Source of the DNA: a virus | Length of the DNA stretch: 64,000 nt | Virus record (IMG/VR): IMGVR_UViG_3300034682_000176 | Location: 160,811 to 224,810 of that record | Reading direction: 5' to 3' (one strand) | Shown: piece by piece, positions 10,508 through 59,400 of the stretch | Position numbering within the stretch: the first letter of the stretch is position 1 | Layout: each line of letters opens with the position of its first letter | Notes under the pieces: model-generated | Told to the model about the DNA's origin: nothing | The model's database searches: none | Seen by the model: only the letters and a program-made list of their open reading frames with translations | Translations under genes and position numbers: made by a program

Positions 10508-10930
10508 ATGACTAAGTTCCGTGTTTGGCTGTACTCGTTGTTTGAGCCTGTCCTGCTCAACTTTCTGATGCTGACCTTTCCTGGTGTCCGCCAGGATACG
10601 GTCCACTCTCTGATCACAGGGGCATCGGAAGAGCCTGAGCAAAAACCACGTGGTGGTGATTTGCAATCGATCTACAACAACGCTCGCAATCCGCAAGCGT
10701 CGTTTCGGATCTTTCACCTGCGGGTCAAGTACTTTGGATGGGATATCAACCACGCGTTGAAAACACCGGATCGCAAAGATGAGATCCGTGTGGCTGGGTA
10801 CGTCTACAATCTGCGGGAAATTTTCAACAACGCTCCCATGAAGAAGATCAGCTACCACACGTTCCACCGACGTGTGACTCAACAAGGCTGGGACCCTCGT
10901 AAGGCGTTGGAAACTCCTCCAAACAAGTAA
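10508..10930 (+). CDS. module-repeat protein A (2 HTH-like repeats), 140 aa
   Basis: The ATG at 10508 is chosen because AAAGGAAAG lies just upstream and the longer frame runs through a terminator. The N-terminal 25 residues are hydrophobic and could form an amphipathic or membrane helix. Two copies of a roughly 37-residue module follow (about 51-87 and 102-137). Both fit the pattern (L)xx(I/F)Y/F...F-h-x-R-V-xxx-G-W-D-xxx-A-L-x-T-P. The same module builds the proteins at 14569, 15351, 15835 and 16201. It resembles the helix-turn-helix-like segment next to the nuclease in many phage HNH/GIY-YIG homing endonucleases, but no nuclease residues are present. DNA binding is inferred, not shown. Confidence 0.85.
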   Translation: MTKFRVWLYSLFEPVLLNFLMLTFPGVRQDTVHSLITGASEEPEQKPRGGDLQSIYNNARNPQASFRIFHLRVKYFGWDINHALKTPDRKDEIRVAGYVYNLREIFNNAPMKKISYHTFHRRVTQQGWDPRKALETPPNK

Positions 10931-12303: not shown

Positions 12304-13926
12304 TTATGCCGTCATGAAAGCCAAAGTGGCATCCAAGATGTCGGTGCTGTTGCTGAAACGGATCTTGCGTTCGTTGTCCAGGTAGTAGGCTTTGTTTTTC
12401 AAAAGCTTGCGCACCTCTTCGATGGCTTCGTCCGACAGCACAGCTTGCAGCGACATGGTGTCACCGTCAAAGTCAGCACCTAGCAAAGCCATGTGAGACT
12501 GGTGAACGATCAAGCCGTTCACAAATGTGCTGTCCTTGTCGGGGAAGCTATGAAGCACTTCATCCGTGGGGTTCCACTGTTCATCCAGCTCCCGCACTTG
12601 CTTGTACTTGACTGTGGTGAACAGCTTCATGAACGCCGGGTAGATACCACCATAACCCTGGATGGGGTAGCGGGTCACAAACCCTGGCAACTTGCCGGAC
12701 AAGCGCGCCACACTCAGGTACAGCAGTTCCGTCATGGTGATCGGGGCTACGTGCTTTTTGTCCAAGTGTGCTGGCAGGTCACGGATGTCCTGGAAGAACT
12801 TCACGTACTTGCCGTCGTTGTACAGCAGTCCCATGCAGTGCTTGGAGCGGTTGGTAAACACGGGCAGGTGACGAGTGTCTTGCCGTGCGAAGTTGGCAAT
12901 CACGGTCTCCAAGCCGTCGGTGGTCATCCAGCGATCGTAGTCCTTTTGGACGTGGCTGTTGAGGACTTCTTCCTTTTGCCAGGTCTTGAGGTTGGTCATG
13001 TAGGCAAAGGTGTTGTTCTCGCTGAACACCTGTTGCACATAACGGGTACGGATCTCGAACAACGTCTTAGGAGACGCGGCACGCAAGAACTGGTGCAGAC
13101 CGACACCGATGTCGTTCATACAGACCCGGTTGGGGTCAGAGATGTGGGTGGGCTCGTTGACCGAAGCCGTGATCACGTTTCGGGTCGAGTTGAACGTCTT
13201 GCGACTGAGCCACTTCCCCAGGATCAGTTTGTGCTTGCCTTCCAGCAGGCTTTGGATGTAGTCGTACAGCTCCAGAATACTCTTTTGCAGGTTGCTGTAG
13301 ACATTGTCGTAGGAGTAAGGTGTGCGTCGTGCGATGTCGGCATCCACCAGCTGAGACTGCGCAAGGATGCGGCGGTAGAAGGTGTTGACTTCATCTTCTT
13401 CCGGCTTACCGTTCGGGCTGATGGTGTAGTCCCGCAAACCGGCCGGCATGACCAACATGTAGCGCAGCAAGTGCTTGTCCTCACCGACGGCCTTGTTGAA
13501 GAACTTGATGTTCTCGGTACGCTTGTCTGAAGCATTGGACTCAAAGCTCAAATCCGCCACGTGCTTCAAAAAGAACGTGTAGCCAGTTTGTGCGGTGGGT
13601 TCGTTGCTCTTTTCAAACTGACGCAGTTTGGGATTCCAGATGGCGGAGATCGAGCCATCCATGATGCCTTTGTAAAAAGACTTCAAGGTGATGATGGTCT
13701 TGTACACCAAGGGGTGCAAGATGGGGTAGCGCAGATCGATGTAGCCAAACATGCGGGTGCGATGCTCGCTGCCAATCGGACCAAAGATCTGGGTCGAGAA
13801 CAAACCATCTTGGTGGAAGTTGCTACCCTGACCAAAGATCTGCAGCTCCTTGATCTGACCCAAGCGCGATAGGTCAGAATCCTTGACACGCAACAGCGCG
13901 ATGTTAACCGGTGGGAGTGAAGACAT
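12304..13926 (-). CDS. phage multisubunit RNA polymerase, beta'-like N-terminal subunit (zinc ribbon missing), 540 aa
   Basis: Part of a phiKZ-type RNA polymerase. The N-terminus carries DGLFSTQIFGP, matching the DGLFxxxIFGP signature of bacterial beta'. The catalytic magnesium loop is GADFDGDTMS near residues 483-492 (bacterial NADFDGD). In bacteria a four-cysteine zinc ribbon separates IFGP from the GHIELA segment. Here IFGP is followed after about 10 residues by MFGYIDLRYPILHP, so the ribbon is gone. The chain stops soon after the catalytic loop, so the rest of beta' must be a separate gene outside this window. Position beside virion genes suggests the virion polymerase (phiKZ gp180-like), but this assignment is inference; the other fragment at 38930 would then be the non-virion one. 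Confidence 0.88.
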   Translation of the reverse strand: MSSLPPVNIALLRVKDSDLSRLGQIKELQIFGQGSNFHQDGLFSTQIFGPIGSEHRTRMFGYIDLRYPILHPLVYKTIITLKSFYKGIMDGSISAIWNPKLRQFEKSNEPTAQTGYTFFLKHVADLSFESNASDKRTENIKFFNKAVGEDKHLLRYMLVMPAGLRDYTISPNGKPEEDEVNTFYRRILAQSQLVDADIARRTPYSYDNVYSNLQKSILELYDYIQSLLEGKHKLILGKWLSRKTFNSTRNVITASVNEPTHISDPNRVCMNDIGVGLHQFLRAASPKTLFEIRTRYVQQVFSENNTFAYMTNLKTWQKEEVLNSHVQKDYDRWMTTDGLETVIANFARQDTRHLPVFTNRSKHCMGLLYNDGKYVKFFQDIRDLPAHLDKKHVAPITMTELLYLSVARLSGKLPGFVTRYPIQGYGGIYPAFMKLFTTVKYKQVRELDEQWNPTDEVLHSFPDKDSTFVNGLIVHQSHMALLGADFDGDTMSLQAVLSDEAIEEVRKLLKNKAYYLDNERKIRFSNSTDILDATLAFMTA

Positions 13927-14069
13927 GTCGAAGCTCTCAAGATAGGATTAAAGGGTTCACAAAATCTAACCGACAGTGTGGTAAGACAAGTCAGGACTTG
14001 TCGAAGTGCTATTGTTTTTTCAAAATTATTGTACCTCTATGATGGGAGACTCGTTTGACCTGTATTTGG
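13927..14069. other. divergent intergenic region
   Basis: Contains the minus-strand start region of the RNAP gene and leads into the promoter-like element at 14070 for the plus strand. A T-rich stretch TTGTTTTTTCAAAATT lies near 14010-14026. No gene is supported. Confidence 0.4.
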
Positions 14070-14091
14070 TTACATATATAGATCACGATGC
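14070..14091 (+). promoter_or_regulatory. putative phage promoter TTACATATATA...CACGA
   Basis: TTACATATATAGATCACGATG, a full match to the recurrent element including the downstream CACGA, about 60 bp before the ATG at 14131. Confidence 0.7.
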
Positions 14092-14130
14092 GTACTGTCA
14101 ACCACAACCTTTCACGGAAGGAACCTCTCT

Positions 14131-14310
14131 ATGTCTTCTACCACCACCGTCCCAGCCGCTTCCGGCTCTCAAGCGCTCAGCGCCTACGAAACCCTCTACC
14201 AACTCCATGTAGAGAAACCGCAACCTTCAGCGGAACCCAAAAACGTTGCGGCGACCCAACAGCCGCGCGCCGTCCTGCGTCGTCGCTATCGTCGTACGGT
14301 GACCCGCTAA
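14131..14310 (+). CDS. small basic protein, 59 aa
   Basis: A short intact frame with GGAAGGAA 8-12 bp upstream and its own promoter copy at 14070. The first half is Ser/Thr/Ala-rich and flexible. The C-terminus is strongly basic (LRRRYRRTVTR) and likely binds nucleic acid or an acidic partner. Small early phage proteins of this type often act on host machinery; nothing identifies this one. It sits just before the module-repeat gene cluster. Confidence 0.6.
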   Translation: MSSTTTVPAASGSQALSAYETLYQLHVEKPQPSAEPKNVAATQQPRAVLRRRYRRTVTR

Positions 14311-14568
14311 TTCCTGGGGATGTAATTCCTATAGCAACATAACCTATCAGTAAGCCTCAGGACTCTTGTCCGGGCTGTGATATCACGCTGCGTTTAACAC
14401 GCAGACCACATTGACAGTACGCGCACCGGGGTGCTTGACTCTTACGCAGGTCTGCACCCCACCCATCACAATCGAGCATCCGTATAGCGACTATGTCGGT
14501 CGTCGGAGTCTAGGTTGTTTCACTGTTTAGAGGGCAGTGAGCCGTTAGTAACAAAAAGGAGTATCAAC
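14311..14568 (+). other. structured intergenic leader
   Basis: 258 bp without a supported gene. It holds short inverted repeats (CTGCGT / ACGCAG near 14388-14404 and GCACC / GGGTGC near 14422-14433) that may fold in RNA, but no T-tailed terminator and no tRNA signature. It is the leader of the module-repeat gene cluster. Confidence 0.35.
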
Positions 14569-15327
14569 GTGAGAGCACCGGTTAATCAAGAGCTGATTAA
14601 AAGCTATCATCAATTCAACACCAAGAACGTGCCGCTGAGCGTGTTCTTGATGCGTGTCAACAATCTGCGCTGGGACGTCAAAAGAGCTGGCGAAACCCCT
14701 TACGTACCACGAACGGGCGGGCTTGTTGCACAATACAAAGAACTCTACGATCGCATCGAATCTCCAACTGTGGGGTTCGATGTGTTCTGCCGCCGAATGC
14801 GCAACGGCCGTGATGTCGAAGAAGCAGCCAAAGCTCCGAAGATTGAACCTTCTGAGCTGTACAGCTACTACCACCAATACCAAGACAAACCAGCGGTAGG
14901 GTACACCACCTTCTTTAACCGCGTGGTGTCTTTGAATTGGGAGCGCATCAAAGCCATCACCACACCACCGACGCGCAAAATGAAACCGCGCAAAGAGGTA
15001 CGTTCCAACACGTACCTGGCCATGTGGTTCAACAAAAACATTGAACGCGCCAAAGTCGATTGGAGCTGTTTTTCCCAACGTGTCTTCAAAGGCGGGTGGG
15101 ACAAAGAAAGAGCTCTGACGACACCTTCCATGGCCGAGAATGAATCTCAGCTGCGCGCCTTCTACAACCAACACCCTGACTGTCCAGTCAACTACATGAC
15201 GTTCCACCGTCGTGTGTATGCCCTGGGGTGGGATATGCAGCGTGCAATCTCTACCCCAGTTCGTGACAACACCCGTTCGCAGCGTGAGCGCGTCGTTGTG
15301 AGTTCCCGACCATCCAAGTACAACTAA
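14569..15327 (+). CDS. module-repeat protein B (5 HTH-like repeats), 252 aa
   Basis: The start is a GTG at 14569, chosen because AAAAAGGAGTATCAAC directly precedes it. Five copies of the module fill nearly the whole protein (about 9-44, 55-90, 97-133, 149-186, 195-230), spaced at about 46 residues. Each ends in a GWD/NWE-xxx-A-(I/L)-T-TP-like block; repeat 2 has lost the Trp (NGRDVEEA). Linkers are basic and rich in Pro. There is no nuclease, ATPase or membrane segment. It is first of four adjacent genes of the same type (gaps of 23, 16 and 18 bp), so they form one operon. A tandem array of DNA-binding modules is the natural reading, but binding is unproven. Confidence 0.88.
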   Translation: MRAPVNQELIKSYHQFNTKNVPLSVFLMRVNNLRWDVKRAGETPYVPRTGGLVAQYKELYDRIESPTVGFDVFCRRMRNGRDVEEAAKAPKIEPSELYSYYHQYQDKPAVGYTTFFNRVVSLNWERIKAITTPPTRKMKPRKEVRSNTYLAMWFNKNIERAKVDWSCFSQRVFKGGWDKERALTTPSMAENESQLRAFYNQHPDCPVNYMTFHRRVYALGWDMQRAISTPVRDNTRSQRERVVVSSRPSKYN

Positions 15328-15350
15328 TCCACCCCGTAAAGCGTATAGTC

Positions 15351-15818
15351 ATGACCACTACTTTGCGTATTTTGAAGACCGCTCCTTACATCACACCCAT
15401 CGAACAACTGTTGCGTGAGTATCAAGAATTTGCCAACCTGAGTCTTCCCAAAGACGTCTACATCAGCCGTGGTGGTGTTCAAGCCAAAACACCTCAGTTG
15501 AGTGCTGCCAGCTACATCCCTGACAGTCTGGAAGACCGTTCGCTACTCAAGCAGTTTGAACAGATCGAAGGACGTGTCGTAGATTTTGGCACCTTCCGCC
15601 GCCGTGTGCGCGGCGGTATGGAAACCATGCCAGCAGCCAAGACTCCGCTGCGCAAACGCAATCGTTCGTCCTACCAGAGCCACAACAAAAGTGGCATTCG
15701 TCTGGCGTACGAGCATGCTCCATCGACTCCGGCCGTTCCATTCAGCACGTACTACGTGCGTGTGAAAGTGCTGAGCTGGCCTATCCAAAAAGCTCTGTAC
15801 ACCCCTTTGCATCATTGA
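15351..15818 (+). CDS. module-repeat protein C (2 clear and 1 degenerate repeat), 155 aa
   Basis: The ATG at 15351 follows the stop of protein B by 23 bp; the binding site is weak (GTAAAGCG). The first repeat (about 19-48) is degenerate and lacks the GWD block but keeps the Leu/Tyr helix and TP end. Repeats at about 64-99 and 116-152 are clearer, with FGTFRRRV and FSTYYVRV as core strings. The linker RKRNRSSYQSHNK is very basic. It has the same family and operon as its neighbours. Confidence 0.82.
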   Translation: MTTTLRILKTAPYITPIEQLLREYQEFANLSLPKDVYISRGGVQAKTPQLSAASYIPDSLEDRSLLKQFEQIEGRVVDFGTFRRRVRGGMETMPAAKTPLRKRNRSSYQSHNKSGIRLAYEHAPSTPAVPFSTYYVRVKVLSWPIQKALYTPLHH

Positions 15819-15834
15819 CCCCTTTGTTTTTGAA

Positions 15835-16182
15835 ATGAGTATGTTGGACCAACCCACACCACAAATCGACAAGACCACTTTTAAGTCTCCGAAAGACATT
15901 CGGGAACAACTGGAGCAAATCTATCGTGACCATCCCAATCCACCGATTCCATACTCGGTGTTTTACTCGCGTGTGCAGTACCTGGGTTGGGACGTCATCA
16001 GTGCGTTGACCACGGCCATTGCCAAGGAGTTCAGCCATCGCCCACGTGGCGAGATCCGTCAGTTCTACGACGACAATGTAGCGCGCGCTCAAGTCAACCT
16101 GAACGTATACAACGGTCGGGTGCGTATGGGTGGTTGGGACAAAGAAAAAGCGTTGACGACACCTGTTGGCGCTCGTGCTTGA
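15835..16182 (+). CDS. module-repeat protein D (2 repeats), 115 aa
   Basis: Two modules (about 26-60 and 74-110) after a 25-residue unstructured leader. Repeat 1 reads YSVFYSRVQYLGWD, repeat 2 YNGRVRMGGWDKEKALTTP. The ATG at 15835 is followed in frame by another at 15841. No good ribosome binding site is seen, so translation may be coupled to the gene at 15351. It is the smallest member of the cluster. Confidence 0.82.
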   Translation: MSMLDQPTPQIDKTTFKSPKDIREQLEQIYRDHPNPPIPYSVFYSRVQYLGWDVISALTTAIAKEFSHRPRGEIRQFYDDNVARAQVNLNVYNGRVRMGGWDKEKALTTPVGARA

Positions 16183-16200
16183 TATAAAAAGGAGTTTCAG

Positions 16201-17202
16201 ATGAGTCAGAAAAAACCATCTCAGTACAACCGTGATGAGTTGATCAACTACTACAACAAAGTAGACAACCCAGCGGTACCGCTGGGTCGCTTCTTGCAAC
16301 GGGTCAGCCAAAGCGGCTGGACCTTGGAGCGTGCAGCCACTGCTACGGCTTACCGCAGCGGTGGTACTGCCCACCGCTGTACCGAGTACTACAACGCAGT
16401 TCCTCCAGAGGAGCGCGGTGTGACGTTCGATACGTTCTACAGCCGTGTGATGCGGGGGTGGGACATGCACCGCGCTGCCCGTGAAAAGCCACGGGAAAAA
16501 GCAGCACCCTACCGTGAGTTCTACGACAAACACCCCAACCCCCAAGTGGACTTCGCCATTTTTTATGTGCGGGTCCACTCCAACAATTGGGAACTAGAGC
16601 GCGCCATTACCACACCGGTCGTACCTATGGCCGATGGTCGTGACTGGTGCCAGGAACGGGTGTTCTACGAAGCCAACCGCCATCGCGCCAAGGTTGATCT
16701 GGCCTTGTTCCACAACCGCGTGAAAATGCGCAAGTGGGACATGGAAACTGCATTGGTCACACCGAAGCGTGACAGCGCAACGCGAAACGAAAGCCTGCGC
16801 AGCTACTTTGACAACCACCCCAATCCACAAGTCAGCTACAAGACTTTTGTCAGCCGTGCGGGTCGTGGTGGTTGGACCAAAGAGTCAGCCATCACAGCCC
16901 AGCCACGTCCAGTGACAGCCCGTCGTAACGGCGCCAAGTCGGACATGCCTTTGACACCTCGTCAGCAACGCTTTGCCGATGCGCGGGAGTTCTTCAAAGA
17001 GCACAAGGACTTGGCGGTTGTGGATGTGCAAACGTTCTTGCGTCGTGTGTGTTCAGACAACTGGGACCCAATGCAGGCCATCACTACCGAACTGGCGGAC
17101 ACCAAACCCACACGGGCTGAAACTGGTGCAATGACCAATTCGTTGCAATCGGCATTCATGAACTTCTGTCGTCCGGCTGTGTCGTCATCAGCTCACTCAT
17201 AA
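16201..17202 (+). CDS. module-repeat protein E (6 repeats), 333 aa
   Basis: Largest member. AAAAAGGAGTTTCAG precedes the ATG. Six modules lie at about 13-50, 61-97, 104-139, 153-188, 199-235 and 261-296, and a Ser-rich tail follows. Repeats 3 and 5 share the string DxHPNPQVxxxxF and otherwise differ mostly before and within the R-V helix, as expected for units that read different targets. Basic linkers (RRNGAK) separate later repeats. No catalytic domain. It is the last gene of the cluster, followed by a terminator. Confidence 0.88.
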   Translation: MSQKKPSQYNRDELINYYNKVDNPAVPLGRFLQRVSQSGWTLERAATATAYRSGGTAHRCTEYYNAVPPEERGVTFDTFYSRVMRGWDMHRAAREKPREKAAPYREFYDKHPNPQVDFAIFYVRVHSNNWELERAITTPVVPMADGRDWCQERVFYEANRHRAKVDLALFHNRVKMRKWDMETALVTPKRDSATRNESLRSYFDNHPNPQVSYKTFVSRAGRGGWTKESAITAQPRPVTARRNGAKSDMPLTPRQQRFADAREFFKEHKDLAVVDVQTFLRRVCSDNWDPMQAITTELADTKPTRAETGAMTNSLQSAFMNFCRPAVSSSAHS

Positions 17203-17211
17203 TTGACTGTC

Positions 17212-17247
17212 AGCCATCTAAGCGTCCTCACGGATGCTTAGATGGTT
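17212..17247 (+). terminator. terminator-like hairpin
   Basis: GCCATCTAAGC / GCTTAGATGGT stem with a 12-nt loop at the end of the module-repeat operon; the T run is weak (TTTGATG). Confidence 0.6.
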
Positions 17248-17278
17248 TGATGTCACATTTGACTAAGGGGTATTTTTT

Positions 17279-20200
17279 ATGGCCGGAAAGAAAACTAAAA
17301 AGGACGGGGTCGACGAGTTGGATTTTGGTGATCTTGACGATCTGGATATGGATGAGGTCAATTTTGACGATTCCAGTCTTGATGATCCCGACCGCGCTCC
17401 GTCTCGTTCTGAAGTTGCCAAGGACATGGCCAAACAAGCCAGCACAGGCTTTGTGGAATCCATGGCCAAGAAGACAGCAGAAAAGGCACTGCCGCCGGAG
17501 TACGCCAGCAACTATAGCGATGTCATGGACCTGGCAGGATTTGCCACTGACGTCGTGGATCGCAATAAGCAGCAGCTGGACAAATCCATGTTCAAGCTGG
17601 GCAAAGAAGTCAAGAAGCTGTTGCCCATGCAAATTGGGTTGCTGGACAAATACCTCGCCAAAAAGGAAGAGGAGTTTGCCGAGTTCAAACAGCAGTCCGA
17701 AGAAGAGATGCGCAATGCCTCGATTTCTTCGGAGCTCAGCTCGATCTTTGACCAACAGCTCGATATCCAAAAGGCACTGGAAGCTAAGCGTTCTGCAGAG
17801 GGTCGCGTTGAGACCAAAGAGCGCCTGATCGCTACCAAGCTCAATTTGGATGTACTGCGTAGCATCGATGCCAATGTGGCAACCAGTGCTGCGTTTGAGA
17901 CGCAAATCTCCAAGCAGTTCTTCCGCAAGTCGTTGGAGTTGCAGTACAAGTCGTTCTTCGTGCAAGCAGACATGCTGCGCACGATGCGGGACAGCTACAA
18001 GGGCTTTACGCTGTTGTTGACCAACATCGAAAAGAACTCGGCGCTGCCTGACTACGTCAAACTCAAGAACACTGAGCGACTGGCTGACATTGCTCGCACC
18101 AACGCGACACAAGCGGTATATTCCCAATTGTTCAGCCGCAACAAGTACATCCAAACAGTCAAGGACCGTTTAGGGCGTGCTGTCAACGACAAGGTCACAT
18201 CGATCACCGACTCCATGGGAGACATCACTGATGCCCTGTCGATGATGAACGATGGTGGCAAAGGTGCGGGTTTGCGTGCACTGGGTGGTATTGCTGCTGG
18301 TATTGGTGGTGACACTTTGGGTGAGATGGCAGGTACTCGCTTGGGAGGTAAACTGCAAGAGCGCTTGAAGGACAACAAGTATCTCAACACCGGCGCCAAC
18401 TACCTCAAAGCCTTTGCAGCTTCTCCAGCCACGCTGATGCGGTCTTTGCGCGACAAGGCGGCCGAGCGTGAACAAGAAGCGGAAGGCCGTGGCAGCTGGA
18501 GCTCTAAGCTGTACGGCATGGCCCGTGCAGGTTTGGATTTGACAGCCGAAGATCGTCCTAACATCGGTGTCAAACGGGACAATTACCTGGACCACAACCA
18601 GCCAGCCATCTTTGACAACAAGGCGCACCGTTCGATCACGGAAGCCATTCCCATGCTGCTGTCGCGTATCTTGCAAAAGAACAGCGACATGAACCAGATG
18701 TACTACCAGGCTAACCAACACATCGTTAGCCCACCCAACTCACCGTTGCTGATGTACGACTACCAAGGTCGTAAGCTGGACAGCGGCGAAAGCATCAAAG
18801 CCAAACTGCAAGACAGTGTGTTCTCCCAGCGTTCGACCAAGAACCGCACGACGGCCATTGCCTCGAACACGCTGACCAAGTCCAAGGCCAACATCTCCCG
18901 CAATACGGCGATGACCAAGGACCAAAAGAAACAGCTCAACGCCACCTTGAACGCCAAAGGCGCGCAAGACGCATTGGCTGAGTACTACGCCCGAGCATCG
19001 TCGATCAAGGGGATCAACCTCGATCACGACACACTCATCGTCAATGCCGGTAAGAACAAAGACTTGGCGGCCTTGATCAACGCTAACCCTCAACTTGCAA
19101 AGGTCATTGATGTACTTCGCCAAAATTCAGACAAAGACAATTCATACATCGACCAAAGCCTTGCTGACGTCCAGAACCCTTATCCTATCGAGGCGATTAA
19201 AAACCTCTTTACAGATTCCTCGAAACTCACCAGTGCCAAGCAACCTAACCTTGTCACGGACAAAAACGCAAACGCCATCTCCAAAGCGCTGAGTCGTTTC
19301 ATCCTCAACCGTGGTGAAGACATCACGGCCAACAACATCTTGTCGCGGCTGGCATTCAGCTACTTCCGACCTGATGAGTTCAATGAGCAAGTCAAGCAAA
19401 ACATCGCGGTGTTGATCGACGATGTCAAACGCATCACCTCGCACGGCGATATCGTTTTGCAAAGCTCACTGATGGCCTTGTTGGCACTGGTCAACCAGTC
19501 GCTCAAAGCCAACTTCGAGATTGACCCTGCGGTCTTTAGCAATATCCGCGAACTGTACCCCGACTTTGTCAAGCAGTCCCGACTGACCATTGAAAATCTG
19601 GCCGAAGGCAAGATAGATGCTGGTGTCGACGAGTACATGAACTTCATGGACATCAAGGACGCTACCAAGGTGTCTAACCGCGAAGTCGGTTTGATTCGTG
19701 AGCAGGTGTTTGCGACTTCTGGGGTTGATCGCATTCTCTCTCGCGCCAAGAGCAAGGGTGAAGAGTTCAAGAAAGGACTCACAGCGGCCAGCAGTTCTCC
19801 GACAGCCATGGCTGAGTTCCTGCTGCAACAAGCCAAGAGCTTCAAGTCAACGGTCGCCGCCTCGCTGACCAAGACGTCCAATGAAATCCAGCAAGGATTT
19901 ACCAAGCTGGGTAACCACGTCGATACCTTGGTCAAGGAAGGTTCTGCCAAAGCCCTGGGGTTGATGGTCCAAGAACTCTCTGCCCTGGATCAAAAACTGG
20001 AAAACTACATCGTGCTGACACAGAACGATTTGGCCCAGCGTACTGAAGAGCTGCAAAACGCCAAAGACAGCGTGGTTGAAGTCACTACCCAAACCAAGCT
20101 GCAGCGTGCCGCCACCCGTGAACTTGAACTGTTTGTGCGCATGGGGGAGAAGAACCTCAACGCACTGGTCAAGCTGCGCGAGACCGTCCAACGCAACACC

Positions 20201-20362
20201 CAGTCCATCCGCCAGATGGCACAAAACCCAACCACTCCTCCAACCGAAGCTTTGCGCAAAATGGGCACGGCCATCCGTGACGTGTTGGACCAAGCCAAGA
20301 AACAGTTGGCAGAGCTGGAAGCCGCAGGGGCTTCTGAGCGCGCGGCCGCAGTAGCGGCGTGA
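17279..20362 (+). CDS. large virion-type protein, 1027 aa
   Basis: Not identified. AAGGGG precedes the ATG. The N-terminus has a basic start (AGKKTKK) and then an acidic Asp/Leu stretch (about 13-45). Long helical and coiled-coil-like stretches cover about 100-320. A glycine/alanine-rich hydrophobic patch (LRALGGIAAGIGG, about 335-347) interrupts them. The C-terminal 250 residues are again coiled-coil-like with repeated Gln/Glu/Lys. It sits next to the muralytic protein at 20440 and ahead of a terminator. Composition and position fit an internal virion, tail-tube or tape-measure-type protein. Confidence 0.65.
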   Translation: MAGKKTKKDGVDELDFGDLDDLDMDEVNFDDSSLDDPDRAPSRSEVAKDMAKQASTGFVESMAKKTAEKALPPEYASNYSDVMDLAGFATDVVDRNKQQLDKSMFKLGKEVKKLLPMQIGLLDKYLAKKEEEFAEFKQQSEEEMRNASISSELSSIFDQQLDIQKALEAKRSAEGRVETKERLIATKLNLDVLRSIDANVATSAAFETQISKQFFRKSLELQYKSFFVQADMLRTMRDSYKGFTLLLTNIEKNSALPDYVKLKNTERLADIARTNATQAVYSQLFSRNKYIQTVKDRLGRAVNDKVTSITDSMGDITDALSMMNDGGKGAGLRALGGIAAGIGGDTLGEMAGTRLGGKLQERLKDNKYLNTGANYLKAFAASPATLMRSLRDKAAEREQEAEGRGSWSSKLYGMARAGLDLTAEDRPNIGVKRDNYLDHNQPAIFDNKAHRSITEAIPMLLSRILQKNSDMNQMYYQANQHIVSPPNSPLLMYDYQGRKLDSGESIKAKLQDSVFSQRSTKNRTTAIASNTLTKSKANISRNTAMTKDQKKQLNATLNAKGAQDALAEYYARASSIKGINLDHDTLIVNAGKNKDLAALINANPQLAKVIDVLRQNSDKDNSYIDQSLADVQNPYPIEAIKNLFTDSSKLTSAKQPNLVTDKNANAISKALSRFILNRGEDITANNILSRLAFSYFRPDEFNEQVKQNIAVLIDDVKRITSHGDIVLQSSLMALLALVNQSLKANFEIDPAVFSNIRELYPDFVKQSRLTIENLAEGKIDAGVDEYMNFMDIKDATKVSNREVGLIREQVFATSGVDRILSRAKSKGEEFKKGLTAASSSPTAMAEFLLQQAKSFKSTVAASLTKTSNEIQQGFTKLGNHVDTLVKEGSAKALGLMVQELSALDQKLENYIVLTQNDLAQRTEELQNAKDSVVEVTTQTKLQRAATRELELFVRMGEKNLNALVKLRETVQRNTQSIRQMAQNPTTPPTEALRKMGTAIRDVLDQAKKQLAELEAAGASERAAAVAA

Positions 20363-20378
20363 TTGTCCTACCCTGACC

Positions 20379-20429
20379 CACCCACCGGTCCCGTAAAGAC
20401 TGGTGGGTGTGGTGGTCTTTTTTCTTTTT
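20379..20429 (+). terminator. intrinsic terminator
   Basis: CACCCACCGGTC / GACTGGTGGGTG stem, 7-nt loop, then GGTGGTCTTTTTTCTTTTT. It lies between the two large virion genes and just ahead of the ribosome binding site of the second. Confidence 0.85.
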
Positions 20430-20439
20430 AGGAGAAGGT

Positions 20440-23400
20440 ATGAATCCCGCAGAACTTATCCAGCAATTTCAGAACATCACGACAGGTGCCCTCAAGCAAA
20501 ATGAGAATACCGGAGTGGTCAAGTTTCTGCGCGCAACGGTCAAGACTCTGGAGGGTGTGACCAAGAAGATCGATGGGTTCTTGAAGAGTAAGAACATCGA
20601 TGTCTCGGAACGCTTGAAACAGTTGTCGGAATCGACCACTGGGGCGGCCGATAAAGCGCGCGGTGTCTTGGGCAGTTACAAGGACGAGATCAAAAACAAG
20701 GGCTTTCGTGGTTTCCTCAAGTCCAAAGCAAATGACGTGCAGTCCATGTTGACTGAGAAGTTTGCTTCGGACACAGAAACCAGTGGAGCACCCCCTGACG
20801 ATCAAAACCCCTCCATCATTGCCAAACTCCAGGATTCGATCAACACCCTCACTGACTCGATCGAAAACCTTGCCAAGAAGTCCTTGCCTGCCGGTTTTGC
20901 TGGTGGTGCAGAAGACGTTGGTGTCACCACTTCCCGCAGCTCCAACTCCAGCGATTACGCCGATGCTTTGCGCAAAGCCAAAGAACGTGCCGAAACCCGC
21001 AAGAAAGAGATCGAGCAAGAGAAAGAAGCCGTCCGCAACAAGAACAAACCAGGAGGTGCCAAACAACCCAGTTGGCTCTCTAAGATCTTGGGTGCTGTGG
21101 GGCGTATTGGTCCTTTCATTGTCGGTGGTCTGGGTCGCGTAATTACCGCCGCTATTCCTGCCTTGGTAGGATTGACCGGAAAGATGATGGGTGGTATCCT
21201 GACCCGACTGACCCCTAAGTTGGCAGGATTGATCGCACGAGGTACCAGCAAACTGGTGACTGGTGGTGCCAAGATGGCCGGACGTGGTCTGTGGGGTGCT
21301 GCCAAGTTCGCTGCGACCCGTGCTGCACCCGCTTTGCTGGCTGGAGCCAAAGCCTTGGGTGGTGCCTTGGTGACTACTGTTGGTACAGCGGGTCTGGCCA
21401 TCGGTGGTGCTGTGGTCGGTGCAGGTCTGCTCATCTACGGTGGCTACAAGCTCTACAAGTACCTCAACCGCAACAACGTTGCCAACGATATCTTCGGACA
21501 GCTGACCCGTCTGCGTCTGTTGATGTACGGTTTCAATGACACCAAGAAAGAGCACTACTACCGGCTGATGGAGCTGGAGATGATGATGAAAGACTACGTC
21601 CAGGTCAAAGACGGACGGGTCTCGATGGTCAAGCTCGACACCAAACTCAAAGACAAGGTCAAGGACTTGTTCGAGGTCAAAGCGGACGAAAAGGAAAAGT
21701 ACGCCATCTTGAACACGTGGTTTGCACGCCGATTTATGCCCGCTTTCAAGGCGTTCATGGATGCGTTCATGCCGCTGGGTCCGAACCTGTACCTGGACAA
21801 GATCGACAAGCTGACAAACGACCAAGTGTTGACGTTGGCTTCCAAGTTGATCGCTCCCACTACCATCTACGACATCAAGCAAGTGCCGACGTTTGACGAT
21901 CCGAAAACCACGGTGGTCAAGCAAGAAGTCGACGACATGCTGGCGGCTATCCGCAACAAGGCCAAAACTGGCTCGACCCAACTCAACGGCCAAGATCCAC
22001 AAAAGGTCAAGGAAAACGTAGACAAACAAACTGGCGCTGCTTCGACGATTGCAACTGCCAAGGCCAACCAAATCACCCAAGCAGGTATTCCTAAGGGTGG
22101 TGCGGGTGAATCTACCCCCCAAGCTTCGATGAACCGTTTTGCCCCAGGCGGTGCTAAATCCCTGGCCAAGATGGAAACCCCGAACCAAGAAGGTGAAGTC
22201 CCTGTGCGAGACACACCGGGTCGCCCACCAGTGCCTATCCCTTCTGGAGCACCTTCAGAAGCCACCAAACTCAACGTTGCGCCGGGTAAACTGCAACCGG
22301 GCGACAAGTCGTTGCAAGGCATCACCATTGGTCCTAAGGGGGACAGCAGCCGACTGATGGGTCTGCACCCGAAAGTCTTCTCGCTGTTTACCGGCATGGC
22401 CAAGGAGTTCAACACCCTCACAGGCAAGAACATCACGGTCAACGAATCGTTCCGCACGTACGACGACCAGATGGCTTTGCGCCAGAAGTACCCTGGCAAG
22501 GCTGCCAAACCCGGCAACTCGATCCACGAATTTGGCATGGCGCTGGACGTCAACAGTCCTGAGGCCAACCTGCTTGATGAAATGGGTCTGCTGCGTAAGT
22601 ACGGTTTCACTCGCCCTGTGGGTGGGGAAACATGGCACTTGGAGCCAGCTGGTGTGGCTGTCAACCCTCAAGCCGCTAAGTCCAACCCCCAAGCCCGTGA
22701 GCAAGCCCTGGATTCTTCGCCAGGTCGCGGTGGTGGTGGGTATGGTGCTTCCAAGTCCACACCTCTGGGTAAACGTAACCTGGAACTGCAAGCCAAGTTG
22801 TTTAGCGAAGGCTCGGCCTCTACGGTCGATACGGCTGCTATCAGCGATGGCGTCAAAGACACTCCATCCTTCTCCGGTCCTGGTAATATCCCAGCTGCCT
22901 CGACCTCCAACACCTTTGCTGCCACCAACTCGGGTGGGCAGACATCGCCATCCTCCGGCGGTGGTTATGCGGGGTCGGTCGCTAAGACTTCGACCCAAAA
23001 CTCCTTGAGTCGCTCGGGTGTCAGTGTCACAGCTGCCAACAGTCTGGATACCCCTTCGGCAAAATCTTCCAATGCAAACTTGGACCCCGGTGCTATTGGT
23101 ACCAAAGATCTGTCTCCTGCCCAAGCCGTGCGTAAGGCGGCCAGCGTGGTGGGAATGGACCCTGAAGCCATGGTGACCTTTGCCAAGCTGGAATCCAGCC
23201 TGGACCCTAAAGCCGGTGCTTCGACCAGCTCCGCCAAGGGCTTGTTCCAAATCACCAAACCCACTTGGAACGGACTGCTTCCCAAGGAAGGTCCTAAGTA
23301 CAACGTTCCTGAAAATGCGGACATCTTCGATCCGTACTACAACTCGGTCATTGGTATCTCGTACGCCAAGCAAAATGCCGAGTCGGTGCTGCCGTTGGGT

Positions 23401-24144
23401 CGCCAAGCTGGCTTGCCCGATGAAGTCTCTTTGTACCTGGCTCACCACTTTGGACCTTCGGGTTCTAAGCGCTTGATCCAAGCATACATGAGCAACCCCA
23501 ACCAACCAACCCAAGACGCTGTCTCTAGCTCGACGTTTAGTGCCAACCAAGCAGCTTTGGCTGGCAAGACCGTGGGTCAGTACATCCAAGGCTTGATGAC
23601 CAAGATGGGCAACGCTGCCAATACGCCTGAAACAGCCTACAAGGGCATGAAAGGCTATAACCAAGGTCAGAGTACCAATAGCGAGTCGAACGCCGCTACA
23701 GACGCTTCTGCGGACGTTCAAACGTCCAGCGTGTACACCCCTTCGGCCAAGCCTGTTTCTTTGCCACCACCCGGTGCGCGGATGCAGCGCTCCGAGTTGC
23801 CGACGCCGGCACCAACGACGTCTTACCCAGTCCAACAACCTACTGCACGACCAACGATGCTGCCTCCACAGCCATCGATGACGCAGTCCATGGACCCCAC
23901 CAACGAGATCTTGACCAACCAACTGAGTGTGCTGACTGACATCAAGCGCATCTTGGAAGGCTTTGCGGGTCAGGTACCTCGCTCAGCAGCGACGCCGACG
24001 ACCCCTGTTGTACCCAATGCGACACAGGGCACTCCGGCCGCTACTCCCACTGCACCTGCACAACCCCAATCGCCCATTGCGGCTCCTATGAACCGAACTC
24101 CTAGCAGTTCTTCGGTGAGCATGTCTCGCCGGCAAATGACGTAA
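20440..24144 (+). CDS. virion-associated muralytic protein with M15 peptidase-like and lytic transglycosylase domains, 1234 aa
   Basis: Probably cuts the peptidoglycan during DNA entry. The ATG at 20440 has AGGAGAAGGT in front; the longer frame starts inside a terminator. Order: coiled-coil/charged N-terminus (1-215); long hydrophobic Gly/Ala stretch (about 220-345) that could insert in a membrane; Pro/Ser-rich linkers; a D-Ala-D-Ala carboxypeptidase-like domain (about 640-735) with SFRTYDDQ, HEFGMALDVN and WHLE, the metal and catalytic residues of the M15/VanY fold. After another linker comes an SLT-type transglycosylase domain (about 890-1030) with catalytic-looking Glu in AKLESSLDP and KGLFQIT. 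The C-terminus is Pro/Ser/Thr-rich. It may correspond to the large SLT-bearing virion protein of phiKZ (gp181), by domain only. Confidence 0.85.
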   Translation: MNPAELIQQFQNITTGALKQNENTGVVKFLRATVKTLEGVTKKIDGFLKSKNIDVSERLKQLSESTTGAADKARGVLGSYKDEIKNKGFRGFLKSKANDVQSMLTEKFASDTETSGAPPDDQNPSIIAKLQDSINTLTDSIENLAKKSLPAGFAGGAEDVGVTTSRSSNSSDYADALRKAKERAETRKKEIEQEKEAVRNKNKPGGAKQPSWLSKILGAVGRIGPFIVGGLGRVITAAIPALVGLTGKMMGGILTRLTPKLAGLIARGTSKLVTGGAKMAGRGLWGAAKFAATRAAPALLAGAKALGGALVTTVGTAGLAIGGAVVGAGLLIYGGYKLYKYLNRNNVANDIFGQLTRLRLLMYGFNDTKKEHYYRLMELEMMMKDYVQVKDGRVSMVKLDTKLKDKVKDLFEVKADEKEKYAILNTWFARRFMPAFKAFMDAFMPLGPNLYLDKIDKLTNDQVLTLASKLIAPTTIYDIKQVPTFDDPKTTVVKQEVDDMLAAIRNKAKTGSTQLNGQDPQKVKENVDKQTGAASTIATAKANQITQAGIPKGGAGESTPQASMNRFAPGGAKSLAKMETPNQEGEVPVRDTPGRPPVPIPSGAPSEATKLNVAPGKLQPGDKSLQGITIGPKGDSSRLMGLHPKVFSLFTGMAKEFNTLTGKNITVNESFRTYDDQMALRQKYPGKAAKPGNSIHEFGMALDVNSPEANLLDEMGLLRKYGFTRPVGGETWHLEPAGVAVNPQAAKSNPQAREQALDSSPGRGGGGYGASKSTPLGKRNLELQAKLFSEGSASTVDTAAISDGVKDTPSFSGPGNIPAASTSNTFAATNSGGQTSPSSGGGYAGSVAKTSTQNSLSRSGVSVTAANSLDTPSAKSSNANLDPGAIGTKDLSPAQAVRKAASVVGMDPEAMVTFAKLESSLDPKAGASTSSAKGLFQITKPTWNGLLPKEGPKYNVPENADIFDPYYNSVIGISYAKQNAESVLPLGRQAGLPDEVSLYLAHHFGPSGSKRLIQAYMSNPNQPTQDAVSSSTFSANQAALAGKTVGQYIQGLMTKMGNAANTPETAYKGMKGYNQGQSTNSESNAATDASADVQTSSVYTPSAKPVSLPPPGARMQRSELPTPAPTTSYPVQQPTARPTMLPPQPSMTQSMDPTNEILTNQLSVLTDIKRILEGFAGQVPRSAATPTTPVVPNATQGTPAATPTAPAQPQSPIAAPMNRTPSSSSVSMSRRQMT

Positions 24145-26611: not shown

Positions 26612-27532
26612 ATGGCCATGACTATTTACGCTTGCGGCGGCGCTGGTATCAACGTCGTCAAGCAAATCAAAGACCTGGACATCAACATCAACTACATCGA
26701 CACCTCGGCCAGCAACCTGAAGGCGGTCAAGAGCGAGAACATCTACCTGGTCGAAGACATGGACGGCGCCGGCAAGAACCGCGTGGTGGCGTACGAAAAC
26801 TTCAAGGGCAATGCTGCCGATGTGTTGGTGCGCTTCAAGCCCTCGGAACAGCTGAACATCGTGATCAGCTCGCTGACCGGCGGCTCTGGTGCCATCCTGG
26901 CATCCCTGATCACCAAGGAACTGGTGGACCAAGGCCACAACACCATCGTCATCGGACTGGACTCGGACGGCTCTTTGATCGAGCTGTCCAATTCGGTCAA
27001 GACCCTGAAGACCTACCGCGCCATCAGCAAGCAGATCAGCAAGCCGATTCCGCTGTACTACGTTAACCAAGCCACACGCTCCGACGCCGACCGCCAAGCC
27101 CTGGGTTTCATCACCCTGATGGCGCTGGTGATCGACAAGAAGCGCACGGCTGAGTTCGACAACTCCGATCTGAACTCGTTCCTGTACTTCGACAAGACCA
27201 CGGTCAACGATCCCTCGGTGTCGGTGATCGAAGTCACCCCCAACGAAGAAATCGTGGCCGAAAAGAACACCTCGGTCGTGGGCACGATCTTTGTGACCAC
27301 TTCCAAGGACACCACGATCAAGCCGGTCAAGCCCGAGTACCTGGCCACCTGTCTGGTGACCGACACCGAGTACCAAAACGAGGACTCGCGCATCAACGCC
27401 GTGCTGGGCAAACTGCCGCTGATCATCAGCTCCCTGGAAGCCGACATCAAGGAACTGGAAGACAGCAAGCGCATCAACCGTGTCAACGACGTCGAAGTCC
27501 TGGACTCCAACGCTGACGGCATCGTGATCTAA
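26612..27532 (+). CDS. phuZ: tubulin/FtsZ-like GTPase PhuZ, 306 aa
   Basis: Phage tubulin that in phiKZ-like phages forms filaments which centre the phage nucleus and carry capsids. The N-terminal glycine loop CGGAGIN (about 8-14), the T3-like loop DMDGAGKNR (about 49-57) and the tubulin signature SLTGGSGA (87-94) are all visible, the last being a variant of GGGTGSG. NSVKTLKTY at 127-135 fits the T5-to-H6 region. Length matches the roughly 310-residue PhuZ family. AAAGGAGTCTC precedes the ATG, and a promoter copy lies at 26550. A terminator follows at 27547, so it is a monocistronic transcript. G/C-ending codons are frequent, suggesting high expression. Confidence 0.85.
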   Translation: MAMTIYACGGAGINVVKQIKDLDININYIDTSASNLKAVKSENIYLVEDMDGAGKNRVVAYENFKGNAADVLVRFKPSEQLNIVISSLTGGSGAILASLITKELVDQGHNTIVIGLDSDGSLIELSNSVKTLKTYRAISKQISKPIPLYYVNQATRSDADRQALGFITLMALVIDKKRTAEFDNSDLNSFLYFDKTTVNDPSVSVIEVTPNEEIVAEKNTSVVGTIFVTTSKDTTIKPVKPEYLATCLVTDTEYQNEDSRINAVLGKLPLIISSLEADIKELEDSKRINRVNDVEVLDSNADGIVI

Positions 27533-56430: not shown

Positions 56431-56482
56431 TATAATTACAAGACCAGGGCTATCCTGTGAATTTTAATACCAGAGGTGAACC

Positions 56483-59400
56483 ATGCTTATCACTTACGGT
56501 CAGTTTGAGCTGCGTCAAGCAGTAAAAAGTTCTGCCCATTTGTTGCAACCCCGCACCGTGTTGCAAGAAAACATGAAGATGCCTCAGGGCTCTTTGATCC
56601 ACTACCTGACACTCAAAGACGACGAGAAGTTTCCCCAACGCAACATGGTCTACCTGGCCGGTGTTCCAGCAAACAAACGCGTCCCCATTTTCCACGTCAA
56701 GGACTTGACCACCAAGACCGAAGTGATGATGTTGGAAAACCGCTACATGGAAAAAGACATCCGTGTCTGGCAGCGTGAACACATGCAGTCTTTTCGGGCT
56801 TGGGAGTTGCTGGAAGTTCCTAACCCCGACCGGCTGACCAACGGCGTGATCAACTACAACTTGCTCAAGGGTTTGTACAAGTACAAGTCCACCATGACAT
56901 CTGGCTACAGCCGGTACATGGACCTGATGCGCACGTACTGGACCACCGTGGCACAAGCCATTGACAAAGATCCCAAGATCAACCACTTTGTCACGCTGCC
57001 TATCCCGAAGGCTCTTCCTTCGCGGATGATGATCAACAAGATCTTGGAGTTCTCGCCAGCGCGTTATGCCCGAGTTGTTACGAGTTCTGAGCTCAACGGT
57101 ATCATTCAGTTGTACCGTTACCTCAATCCCCAAACCCGTGCTGACAGCACGATGGTGACCTTGCCTGAAACGGCGACTGAGCACTTGGCAGTGGAGTTCA
57201 CCTACGACGGCTACAGCGTCTTTTGCAAATTGTCGTACCTGATGAGCTTGCACAAGGACTCGGTACTGGAGAGCAAAACCAAAGTCTCTACAGAACGACT
57301 GCACCAGATCTTCTTGCTGATGCTGCTCAAGATCCAGAACATCGTCGAAGAAAAGCGCAAAGGCAACAACCCTGAGTTGCTGCTCGAAGACCAAATGGAT
57401 GCCAAGGTTGAAGGCACTGAAGTGACGGTGGTCGATGACGGCGACAACTTGGACGATTTGGAAGACAACCCAACCGTTCAACCTGATGCTGTGCAAGATG
57501 CTCAGCTGGCGCAGTTTGAGCGCACGATGGTGCAAGACGCAATCCAAAAACCATCGACCGGTCCAACCACCCCAATCCCACTACCCAAGTTCGATGAGAA
57601 CACAGCGTTCGACGATGAACAAACCGGCTCGGCTTCTTGGGACAAACTGATCGACAGCGGTCTCAGTGAGTTTGAAGGGGCGTCGGACGACTTGTTTGTC
57701 AAGGCGGTTCAAAGCGCCATGCAGCGTCCCGAGGTTGAGCCAGATACGGAGGAAACCACTGACGACAATGCCGTCAGTTCGATCCACCAAATCGACTACT
57801 CCCGGGACCACATCAAACAGGTATTGAAAGACCCAACCCTGCAAGAGAAGTTCGATGCGTACATCGAGCAAGCCAAGGGGTTTGATGCCATCAGCACGGC
57901 CGAAGCCCGCACCCTGCGCAAGACGTTTGAAAAGCGTCAGCTCCTGAAGTCACCCTACAGCGACGTGCCAATTGACAAGTTCAAGGTGCGGACTCCTGAA
58001 GATCTGGCATTGCCGGATACAAAGATCCCCATCCGCAACAGCTTGGTGCCGGACTACCTGAAAGAAGAACGCTTGTTCAACATGGACAAGAAGTACGTTC
58101 AAACCACCTTGCGCAAACACCTGACGGCTTGCGTGACGGCCTTGGAGTCCAACGATCTGATCATCAAGGACTACCAGGTCGAAGAGGTGACACAAAGCAC
58201 AGGCAAGTACGAAATCCACAAACTGGTGCTCAAACCCCTGCGCGGCAAAGAGTCGCCGGTGTATTTCCGCATTCCGGTGATCAATGACGAAGGCGAATAT
58301 GTCGCCGGCGGTGTGCGCTACCGCATGCGTCGCCAAAAGTCCCAGATCCCAATTTACAAAATGTCCCCGACCAAGGTGGGCGTTGCTTCCAACTACAACA
58401 AGCTCTTTGTGTTCCGCACGGAACGTAAAGCGTTTGACCCCTATACCAACATCGTTGAGCAGATCAAGACCAACTACCTGGATGGCAAAGGCAACATCAC
58501 CAAGATTGCGCCGGCCAACCGGTTTGACAACCTGCTGCGTGTGCCCAATATCTACGCAGCGATGTCGCAAAACTTCAACGACATCACCACACCCAAATAC
58601 CGCTTCTTCTTTAACCACAAGGAAATCGGTAACCACATCGACGAAAAGGTCGTCAAGGACTTGCAGAGTAAGGACCTGGTGTTCGTTGGCTACGACCAGC
58701 AAAAGCACATTCTGGTCATGAACCAAGATGAAAACATCTTGGACTACTCGGACTCCATGAAAGAGCTGGGGCCGCTGGAATTGCTGCTGGAGTTGGATAT
58801 CGCCAAAATCCCACAAGCGTTCTCTGCTATCAAGATCCTGGGTGACGCTATCCCTCTGGGTGTGATGTTGGGGTACTACATGGGTCTGAAAGACCTGATG
58901 GCAATCACCAACAGCACCATCCAAATCTACCCACCCAACTCCCGTACCGGTTCGACCACCAAGAACGGGGTGTTCCTGAAGTTTGCCGATGCACGGGTGG
59001 TGATCGAGTGTCCCAACCAAAACGCCACACTGCTGTTTGCAGGCTTTAACTTCTACAAGAACTTCCTCAAGACGCAAAACTTGGAGAGCTTTTACTCCAA
59101 GAATGTGTACCTGGACCTGCTGGAGTCCCGTGACGCCGGACTCATGCATCTGAAGGAAATGGACACTTTGCGTGACAGCTTCTTGGACCCCATCACCAAG
59201 GACGCTCTGGAGGAAATGAACGAGCCTACCGAGTTCTTGCCTCTGATGCTGCGTGCCAACCAGCTGTTGGAAGACTTCCACCACCTGGACGTCAACTCTC
59301 CTGCGCTGACTCGTATCCGTGGCTATGACCGTGTCCCTGGCTTGGTCTACCGCGCTTTGTCCGAATCCATCCGCGCGCACCGCATGAAGGGTGGTAAAGG

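What the first reader, a model, noticed from the sequence alone, without database searches (positions are those of the whole stretch)
14569..17202. Four adjacent genes made of arrays of a roughly 37-residue HTH-like module
Proteins B, C, D and E contain 5, 3 (one degenerate), 2 and 6 copies of a module that ends in F/Y-x-x-R-V-x-x-x-G-W-D/E-x-x-x-A-(L/I)-T-T-P. The module resembles the DNA-binding segment attached to many phage HNH/GIY-YIG homing endonucleases, yet no nuclease domain is present. I know no described system built only from such arrays. Tandem arrays that vary between copies suggest modular nucleic-acid recognition. Possible roles: masking phage DNA, silencing or blocking host targets, positioning phage-nucleus contents, or countering homing enzymes.
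Basis: partly seen in the sequence, partly recalled or inferred. Interest (0 to 1): 0.88.

Follow-up and report, generated by a model that had tools for sequence, protein, structure and literature searches.

The report
Nuclease-less DNA-binding arrays in jumbo phage
A giant bacterial virus carries five neighbouring genes built almost entirely from repeated copies of a small helical module that in other viruses steers DNA-cutting "homing" enzymes to their targets, but here without the cutter, so the proteins probably bind DNA to regulate or block it rather than cut it.

Summary
A profile built only from these copies finds no others in the 224.8-kb genome. The same module occurs at the C-terminus of phage HNH endonucleases and in GIY-YIG endonucleases. 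It also forms small nuclease-less proteins of 2-3 modules (PHROG 1065, unknown function) in Bacillus, Paenibacillus, Geobacillus, Acetoanaerobium and Pectobacterium phages. So 'built only from arrays' is not unprecedented; the 5- and 6-module lengths and the four-gene paralogous operon are the unusual part. AlphaFold predicts three helices per module. The operon fills a 3.35-kb gap between the virion RNA-polymerase beta-type gene and the tail-endolysin gene; in relatives that junction measures about 30-180 bp. It carries a copy of the phage-wide promoter-like motif TTACATATATA. The phage is phiKZ-like and encodes PhuZ and a separate zinc-finger-array homing endonuclease. Best explanation: homing-endonuclease-derived, nuclease-less multi-HTH proteins acting as DNA-binding regulators or site-blockers, as I-TevI autorepression and CapR do. 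The family assignment is strong; the function is inferred. Novelty: new variant of a known kind.

The parts
14569..15327 (+). Gene B, 252 aa, 5 modules, no other domain
   Evidence: PHROG 1065 E=3e-30; pI 9.95
15351..15818 (+). Gene C, 155 aa, 2 modules plus one degenerate N-terminal module
   Evidence: PHROG 1065 E=3.2e-4
15835..16182 (+). Gene D, 115 aa, 2 modules
   Evidence: AlphaFold pLDDT 88, three helices per module
16201..17202 (+). Gene E, 333 aa, 6 modules
   Evidence: PHROG 1065 E=2.5e-32 and PHROG 3377 HNH endonuclease E=2.7e-8; AlphaFold pLDDT 79, pTM 0.31
10508..10930 (+).
   Evidence: PHROG 1065 E=2.7e-8, PHROG 3377 E=5.2e-7
14070..14080 (+). TTACATATATA, copy of a phage-wide promoter-like motif heading the B-E insert
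   Evidence: 10-mer TACATATATA in 11 upstream regions against 0.05 expected; sites listed; window scan 7 against 0.09 expected
14131..14310 (+). Small ORF (59 aa) between the motif and gene B; no family match; may or may not be a gene
17214..17245 (+). Hairpin CCATCTAAGCGTCC-TCAC-GGATGCTTAGATGG just after gene E; possible terminator, but without a T run and not flagged by the scan
   Evidence: sequence read; one search did not list it
12304..13926 (-). Virion RNA polymerase beta-type subunit gene (phiKZ gp180 homologue), flanked by A and by B-E
   Evidence: PHROG 2986 full length E=6e-170
17279..20362 (+). First half of the tail-endolysin/tail-fibre gene (phiKZ gp181-like), right-hand neighbour of the insert
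13927..17278 (.). 3.35-kb insert (B-E and leader) at a junction of about 30-180 bp in relatives
   Evidence: named phages; five IMG/VR relatives

Best explanation
A-E are nuclease-less descendants, or relatives, of phage homing endonucleases. Each is a 'beads on a string' protein of two to six three-helix HTH-type modules that should bind a long, composite DNA site, one module per short stretch. B-E form one operon-like row of divergent paralogues placed beside the virion RNA polymerase gene under a phage-type promoter motif. The most likely job is sequence-specific DNA binding that represses or tunes transcription, their own and perhaps that of neighbouring or competing DNA, as I-TevI's DNA-binding part does for its own promoter and CapR does for a phage capsid operon. 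Shown: the module family, the arrays, absence of a nuclease, the insertion, the motif. Predicted: the three-helix fold. Inferred: DNA binding and the regulatory role.
For: Profile and PHROG links to HNH endonuclease C-termini and presence in GIY-YIG proteins. No nuclease in A-E. Basic proteins, pI 9.3-10.1, and highest helix entropy at helix-2 position 30, with position 23 also high, against an invariant R/V/F/A/W scaffold. Three helices per module; best structural neighbours are small Bacillus phage proteins, one annotated 'putative transcriptional regulatory protein', and PVL ORF-50-like proteins (none below E=0.001). Array-only relatives lie in early replication/regulation operons next to repressors, DnaD, polymerase or primase genes. 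Phage-wide promoter-like motif ahead of the insert. Precedents: I-TevI autorepression (PMC2988022) and CapR from a homing-endonuclease DNA-binding domain (PMC10448857).
Against: No binding data and no operator found: the two upstream regions share nothing longer than 9 bases. No solved structure resembles the model. Sequence matches to curated HTH families are sub-threshold and only in relatives. No orthologue of the window genes was found in the public collections, so selection could not be measured. 'Transcriptional repressor' and 'HNH endonuclease' labels on array-only relatives are untested annotations.
Confidence: 0.48

Rival explanations
1. Homing-site shields or weapons: the arrays occupy homing-endonuclease target sites around the virion RNA polymerase gene, or equivalent sites in a co-infecting phage, blocking cleavage or expression in phage-phage competition.
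For: A and B-E bracket an RNA polymerase gene. PhiPA3 gp210, an HNH enzyme, nicks the vRNAP gene gp178 of a co-infecting phage (PMC11620839). LucasX carries an HNH protein with these modules directly beside an RNA polymerase gene. This genome has a DUF723-array homing endonuclease of its own.
Against: No target site or competing phage identified; a nuclease-free blocker of this kind is not described in the papers read. The array modules are not closely related to any particular endonuclease found.
Confidence: 0.22
2. Decaying homing endonuclease remnants or a selfish insert: the nuclease was lost and the DNA-binding halves multiplied without present function.
For: The insert sits at a junction that is tight in relatives; one degenerate module in C; a fragmenting relative L050.
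Against: Five intact frames; scaffold residues kept in 17 of 17 or 15 of 17 copies at 16-42% mutual identity, which is not expected of decaying sequence; a promoter-like motif of the phage's own type is in place.
Confidence: 0.13
3. DNA-architectural or packaging proteins: basic multi-HTH proteins coat or organise phage DNA with little sequence specificity, possibly inside the phage nucleus or virion.
For: pI 9.3-10.1; neighbours are virion genes; PhuZ homologue present.
Against: Sporadic distribution: absent from all other phiKZ-like genomes tested except HNH-fused copies in LucasX. Module relatives are in site-specific endonucleases. PhiPA3 chimallin had no detectable match here.
Confidence: 0.1
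4. The modules bind RNA or protein rather than DNA.
For: No direct DNA-binding evidence; fold matches weak.
Against: The module relatives that carry a recognisable second domain are mostly DNA endonucleases.
Confidence: 0.07

Closest known systems
PHROG 1065 array-only phage proteins (e.g. Paenibacillus phage Wanderer gp65, Bacillus phage poppyseed Plant_35, Geobacillus PK3.5 gp37, Pectobacterium PcaP2EGY ORF56)
   Same: Consist almost only of the same module, no nuclease, small proteins
   Different: 2-3 modules against 5 and 6 here; no clusters of several paralogues seen; the ones examined in Firmicutes phages sit in early replication/regulation operons, not beside a virion RNA polymerase
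Phage HNH endonucleases of PHROG 3377 / 374 (Moonbeam gp129, LucasX LUCX_77 and LUCX_96)
   Same: C-terminal tandem copies of the module; LUCX_77 also lies next to an RNA polymerase gene
   Different: Carry the HNH domain; A-E do not
CapR, phage-satellite repressor derived from T5orf172 homing-endonuclease DNA-binding domains (PMC10448857)
   Same: Homing-endonuclease DNA-binding part without nuclease; repetitive DNA-binding arrays known in the parent enzymes
   Different: Zinc finger, not this helical module; satellite-encoded; repression demonstrated
I-TevI autorepressor activity (PMC2988022)
   Same: DNA-binding part of a homing endonuclease acting as repressor
   Different: Nuclease still attached; GIY-YIG enzyme with a different DNA-binding region
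Pfam PF07768 PVL ORF-50-like family
   Same: Weak sequence match to array-only relatives and weak structural match to D
   Different: Below Pfam cut-off; not matched by the window proteins; function unknown

Membership tests
PHROG 1065 (array-only module proteins) | Significant match to the family profile | tested here: met
   E=2.5e-32 (E), 3e-30 (B), 7.3e-9 (D), 2.7e-8 (A), 3.2e-4 (C)
PHROG 1065 (array-only module proteins) | Tandem modules without a nuclease domain | tested here: met
HNH homing endonuclease | HNH nuclease domain | tested here: not met
   Only the C-terminal part (positions 104-193 of 196) of PHROG 3377 is matched; no nuclease family hit in Pfam, NCBIfam or PHROGs
HNH homing endonuclease | C-terminal DNA-binding modules of this type | tested here: met
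GIY-YIG homing endonuclease | GIY-YIG catalytic domain | tested here: not met
   Absent from A-E; present in survey proteins L136 and L148 that carry the same module
Helix-turn-helix DNA-binding protein | Tri-helical HTH fold | tested here: inconclusive
   Three helices per module, pLDDT 88; no significant PDB match; sub-threshold HTH Pfam hits in relatives
Helix-turn-helix DNA-binding protein | Binds DNA | not testable with these tools
   No binding assay or protein-DNA docking available
CapR-type repressor | T5orf172-associated zinc-finger domain | tested here: not met
   No DUF723/DUF4379 match in B-E; those domains occur in a separate gene at genome 24931-26415
Transcriptional repressor (any) | Operator in its own or another promoter | tested here: inconclusive
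   No shared site longer than 9 bases between the A and B upstream regions

The most novel reading that the evidence does not exclude
The modules form a combinatorial DNA-recognition array, each module reading a short stretch through its variable helix-2 surface, so that one phage deploys five nuclease-less, differently programmed DNA binders (a natural analogue of TALE or zinc-finger arrays) to silence chosen sites in itself, its host or rival phages.
Probability: 0.15. Interest if true: 0.85.

Novelty: new variant of a known kind. Interest (0 to 1): 0.5.

Why it matters
It ties an uncharacterised phage protein family (PHROG 1065) to the DNA-recognition half of homing endonucleases and gives its most elaborate example found here: five genes and up to six modules. 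If the modules read DNA additively, the arrays offer a natural set from which a recognition code could be worked out, and they would be another case, after AP2 factors and CapR, of homing-enzyme parts recruited as regulators. Their place beside the virion RNA polymerase gene makes a link to phage-phage competition testable.

Tried and rejected
Relatives of E and B in IMG/VR: none. The module alignment had no stretch conserved enough for a collection scan. Tandem-module DNA pattern: 7 viral loci but 0 in genome contigs; type-I module pattern: 0. PDB by sequence and by fold: nothing significant; Ltp (4eqq), a phage superinfection-exclusion protein, appeared at E=5.1 and was set aside as noise. 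Common operator upstream of A and B: nothing beyond 9 bases. Sigma-70 promoters: none found. The module tree is almost unresolved; only B4/D2/E4 group (89/94, below the tool's own star threshold). Array modules in other giant phages with related RNA polymerase genes: none in 20 IMG/VR records. No chimallin match by phmmer with PhiPA3 gp53, which does not exclude a divergent one: PhiPA3 gp39 also missed the PhuZ gene that the PHROG profile later found, so single-sequence negatives here are weak.

Full report
Observation. Genes B (14569-15327), C (15351-15818), D (15835-16182) and E (16201-17202) lie head to tail on the + strand with gaps of 16-23 bases. B and E have clear ribosome-binding sites; C and D do not. 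They contain 5, 2 plus one degenerate, 2 and 6 modules. A fifth gene, A (10508-10930), contains two more. A profile from these 17 clear copies finds each at E about 1e-13 to 1e-21, finds no further copy in the 224,810-base record of which the window is the last 64 kb, and finds nothing in shuffled frames (bases 160001-160810 were not fetched for the profile search but were covered by the protein search). Copies are 16-42% identical to one another yet keep R and A in 17/17, F/Y in 17/17, V in 15/17 and W in 15/17. This is an old, maintained repeat and not a sequence accident.

What the module is. PHROG 1065 (unknown function) matches E at 2.5e-32, B at 3e-30, and D, A and C more weakly. PHROG 3377 'HNH endonuclease' matches E (2.7e-8), A (5.2e-7) and D (0.0053), only over its C-terminal part. 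The profile built from the window alone picks up the HNH enzyme of Bacillus phage Moonbeam in addition to array-only proteins of several phages; a profile extended with those also picks up the HNH enzyme of Xanthomonas jumbo phage LucasX, and PHROG searches confirm both as HNH endonucleases with the module region at the C-terminus. A DNA pattern for GWDxxExALTTP found 61 viral loci. By a rough motif-based sorting, 32 of the proteins look like HNH nucleases with 1-3 modules, two are GIY-YIG proteins (Pfam-confirmed), 10 are array-only with 2-3 modules (some near-identical), and 17 are single-module or fragmentary. The survey is biased to the consensus and the sorting is mine. None of the surveyed nuclease-less proteins had more than three modules.

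Fold. AlphaFold with an alignment of window and viral module pairs gives protein D pLDDT 88 with three helices per module (19-32, 40-48, 54-59; then 73-80, 89-98, 103-108). Protein E repeats the pattern with pLDDT 79 and pTM 0.31, as expected of independently moving beads. Foldseek finds nothing significant in the PDB. In BFVD the best matches are small Bacillus phage proteins (best E=3.5e-3, probability 1.00, annotated 'putative transcriptional regulatory protein'), with PVL ORF-50-like and HNH proteins weaker. By position, helix 2 (YxxFxxRV) corresponds to the part of array-only relatives that sub-threshold HTH models align to, and it contains very variable positions (23 and 30) beside the most conserved ones. 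That is suggestive of a fixed scaffold with a changing surface, but it is not a statistical test; the N-terminal end of helix 1 is as variable.

Genome setting. The phage is phiKZ-like: the RNA polymerase subunit at 12304-13926 matches PHROG 2986 over its full length and phiKZ-type phages at about 37% identity, and 26612-27532 encodes a PhuZ tubulin (E=7.7e-54). In the related phages examined, this subunit gene (phiKZ gp180) and the tail-endolysin gene (gp181-like) are divergent neighbours with about 30-90 bases between them in the named phages and 72-177 in five IMG/VR relatives. In the window the gap is 3,352 bases and holds B-E. On the other side, the gp178-type subunit that is adjacent in relatives has moved to about 56.5-60.9 kb, and gene A lies in the region that replaces it. 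The array genes therefore bracket one virion RNA polymerase gene, the kind of place where homing endonucleases sit: PhiPA3 gp210 (PMC11620839), LucasX LUCX_77, and the general bracketing of essential genes described in PMC10448857.

Expression. The 10-mer TACATATATA is, with pyrimidine runs, the strongest motif upstream of this phage's genes (11 upstream regions against 0.05 in shuffles). Seventeen sites of the broader motif were listed, all on the + strand; most are followed by a frame with a ribosome-binding site. One copy, TTACATATATA at 14070-14080, heads the insert; it precedes a 59-codon frame of uncertain status and then B-E. A hairpin follows E at 17214-17245. The insert thus looks wired into the phage's own transcription programme. 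That the motif is a promoter is inferred from its position and has not been shown.

Mechanism. The most economical reading is sequence-specific DNA binding without cutting. Several copies in series would give affinity and a long site; paralogues with different surfaces would give different sites. The homing-endonuclease precedents are I-TevI, whose DNA-binding part represses its own late promoter (PMC2988022), and CapR, a satellite repressor taken from the zinc-finger domains of T5orf172 endonucleases (PMC10448857). The array-only relatives in Gram-positive phages lie in early operons beside repressors, antirepressors, polymerase, primase and DnaD genes, which fits a regulator. I rate regulator or repressor first, site-shield or competition factor second, remnant third, architectural protein fourth. 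None has direct evidence.

Novelty. The module family and the nuclease-less state are both already present in public databases, unnamed in function. New here are the five- and six-module proteins, the four-gene row of paralogues plus a fifth gene, and their placement around a virion RNA polymerase gene. Hence new variant of a known kind, interest 0.5.

Noticed in passing
G000 genome 24931-26415 (locus L007:4931-6415), outside the window: A 494-aa protein with about five DUF723/DUF4379-type zinc-finger repeats and a C-terminal nuclease-like region (PHROG endonuclease and homing endonuclease matches), preceded by the same TACATATATA motif: an array-type homing endonuclease in the same phage.
   Followed up: partly
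window 26612-27532: PhuZ-type tubulin gene (PHROG 4733, E=7.7e-54), preceded by an ACATATATA motif copy.
   Followed up: partly
window 17279-24144: The phiKZ gp181-like tail-endolysin gene, one frame of 1914-2398 aa in relatives, is two frames here (17279-20362 and 20407-24144).
   Followed up: partly
window about 56480-60883: The gp178-type RNA polymerase subunit gene lies here, far from its usual partner gp180 (12304-13926), unlike in the relatives checked.
   Followed up: partly
all of G000; in window 3266, 14070, 26552, 28499, 34919, 40426, 55712, 60941: Phage-wide promoter-like motif TTACATATATA(C), all listed copies on the + strand of the record, often followed a few bases later by GTGACAT-like bases.
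   Followed up: partly
L136 and L148: GIY-YIG nucleases carrying the same module, L136 possibly with a further AP2-like C-terminus: the module is shared between unrelated nuclease classes.
   Followed up: partly
PP197248.1 CDS0056, NC_054985.1 gp65: Public records label array-only proteins without a detectable HNH domain as 'HNH endonuclease': likely misannotation.
   Followed up: yes
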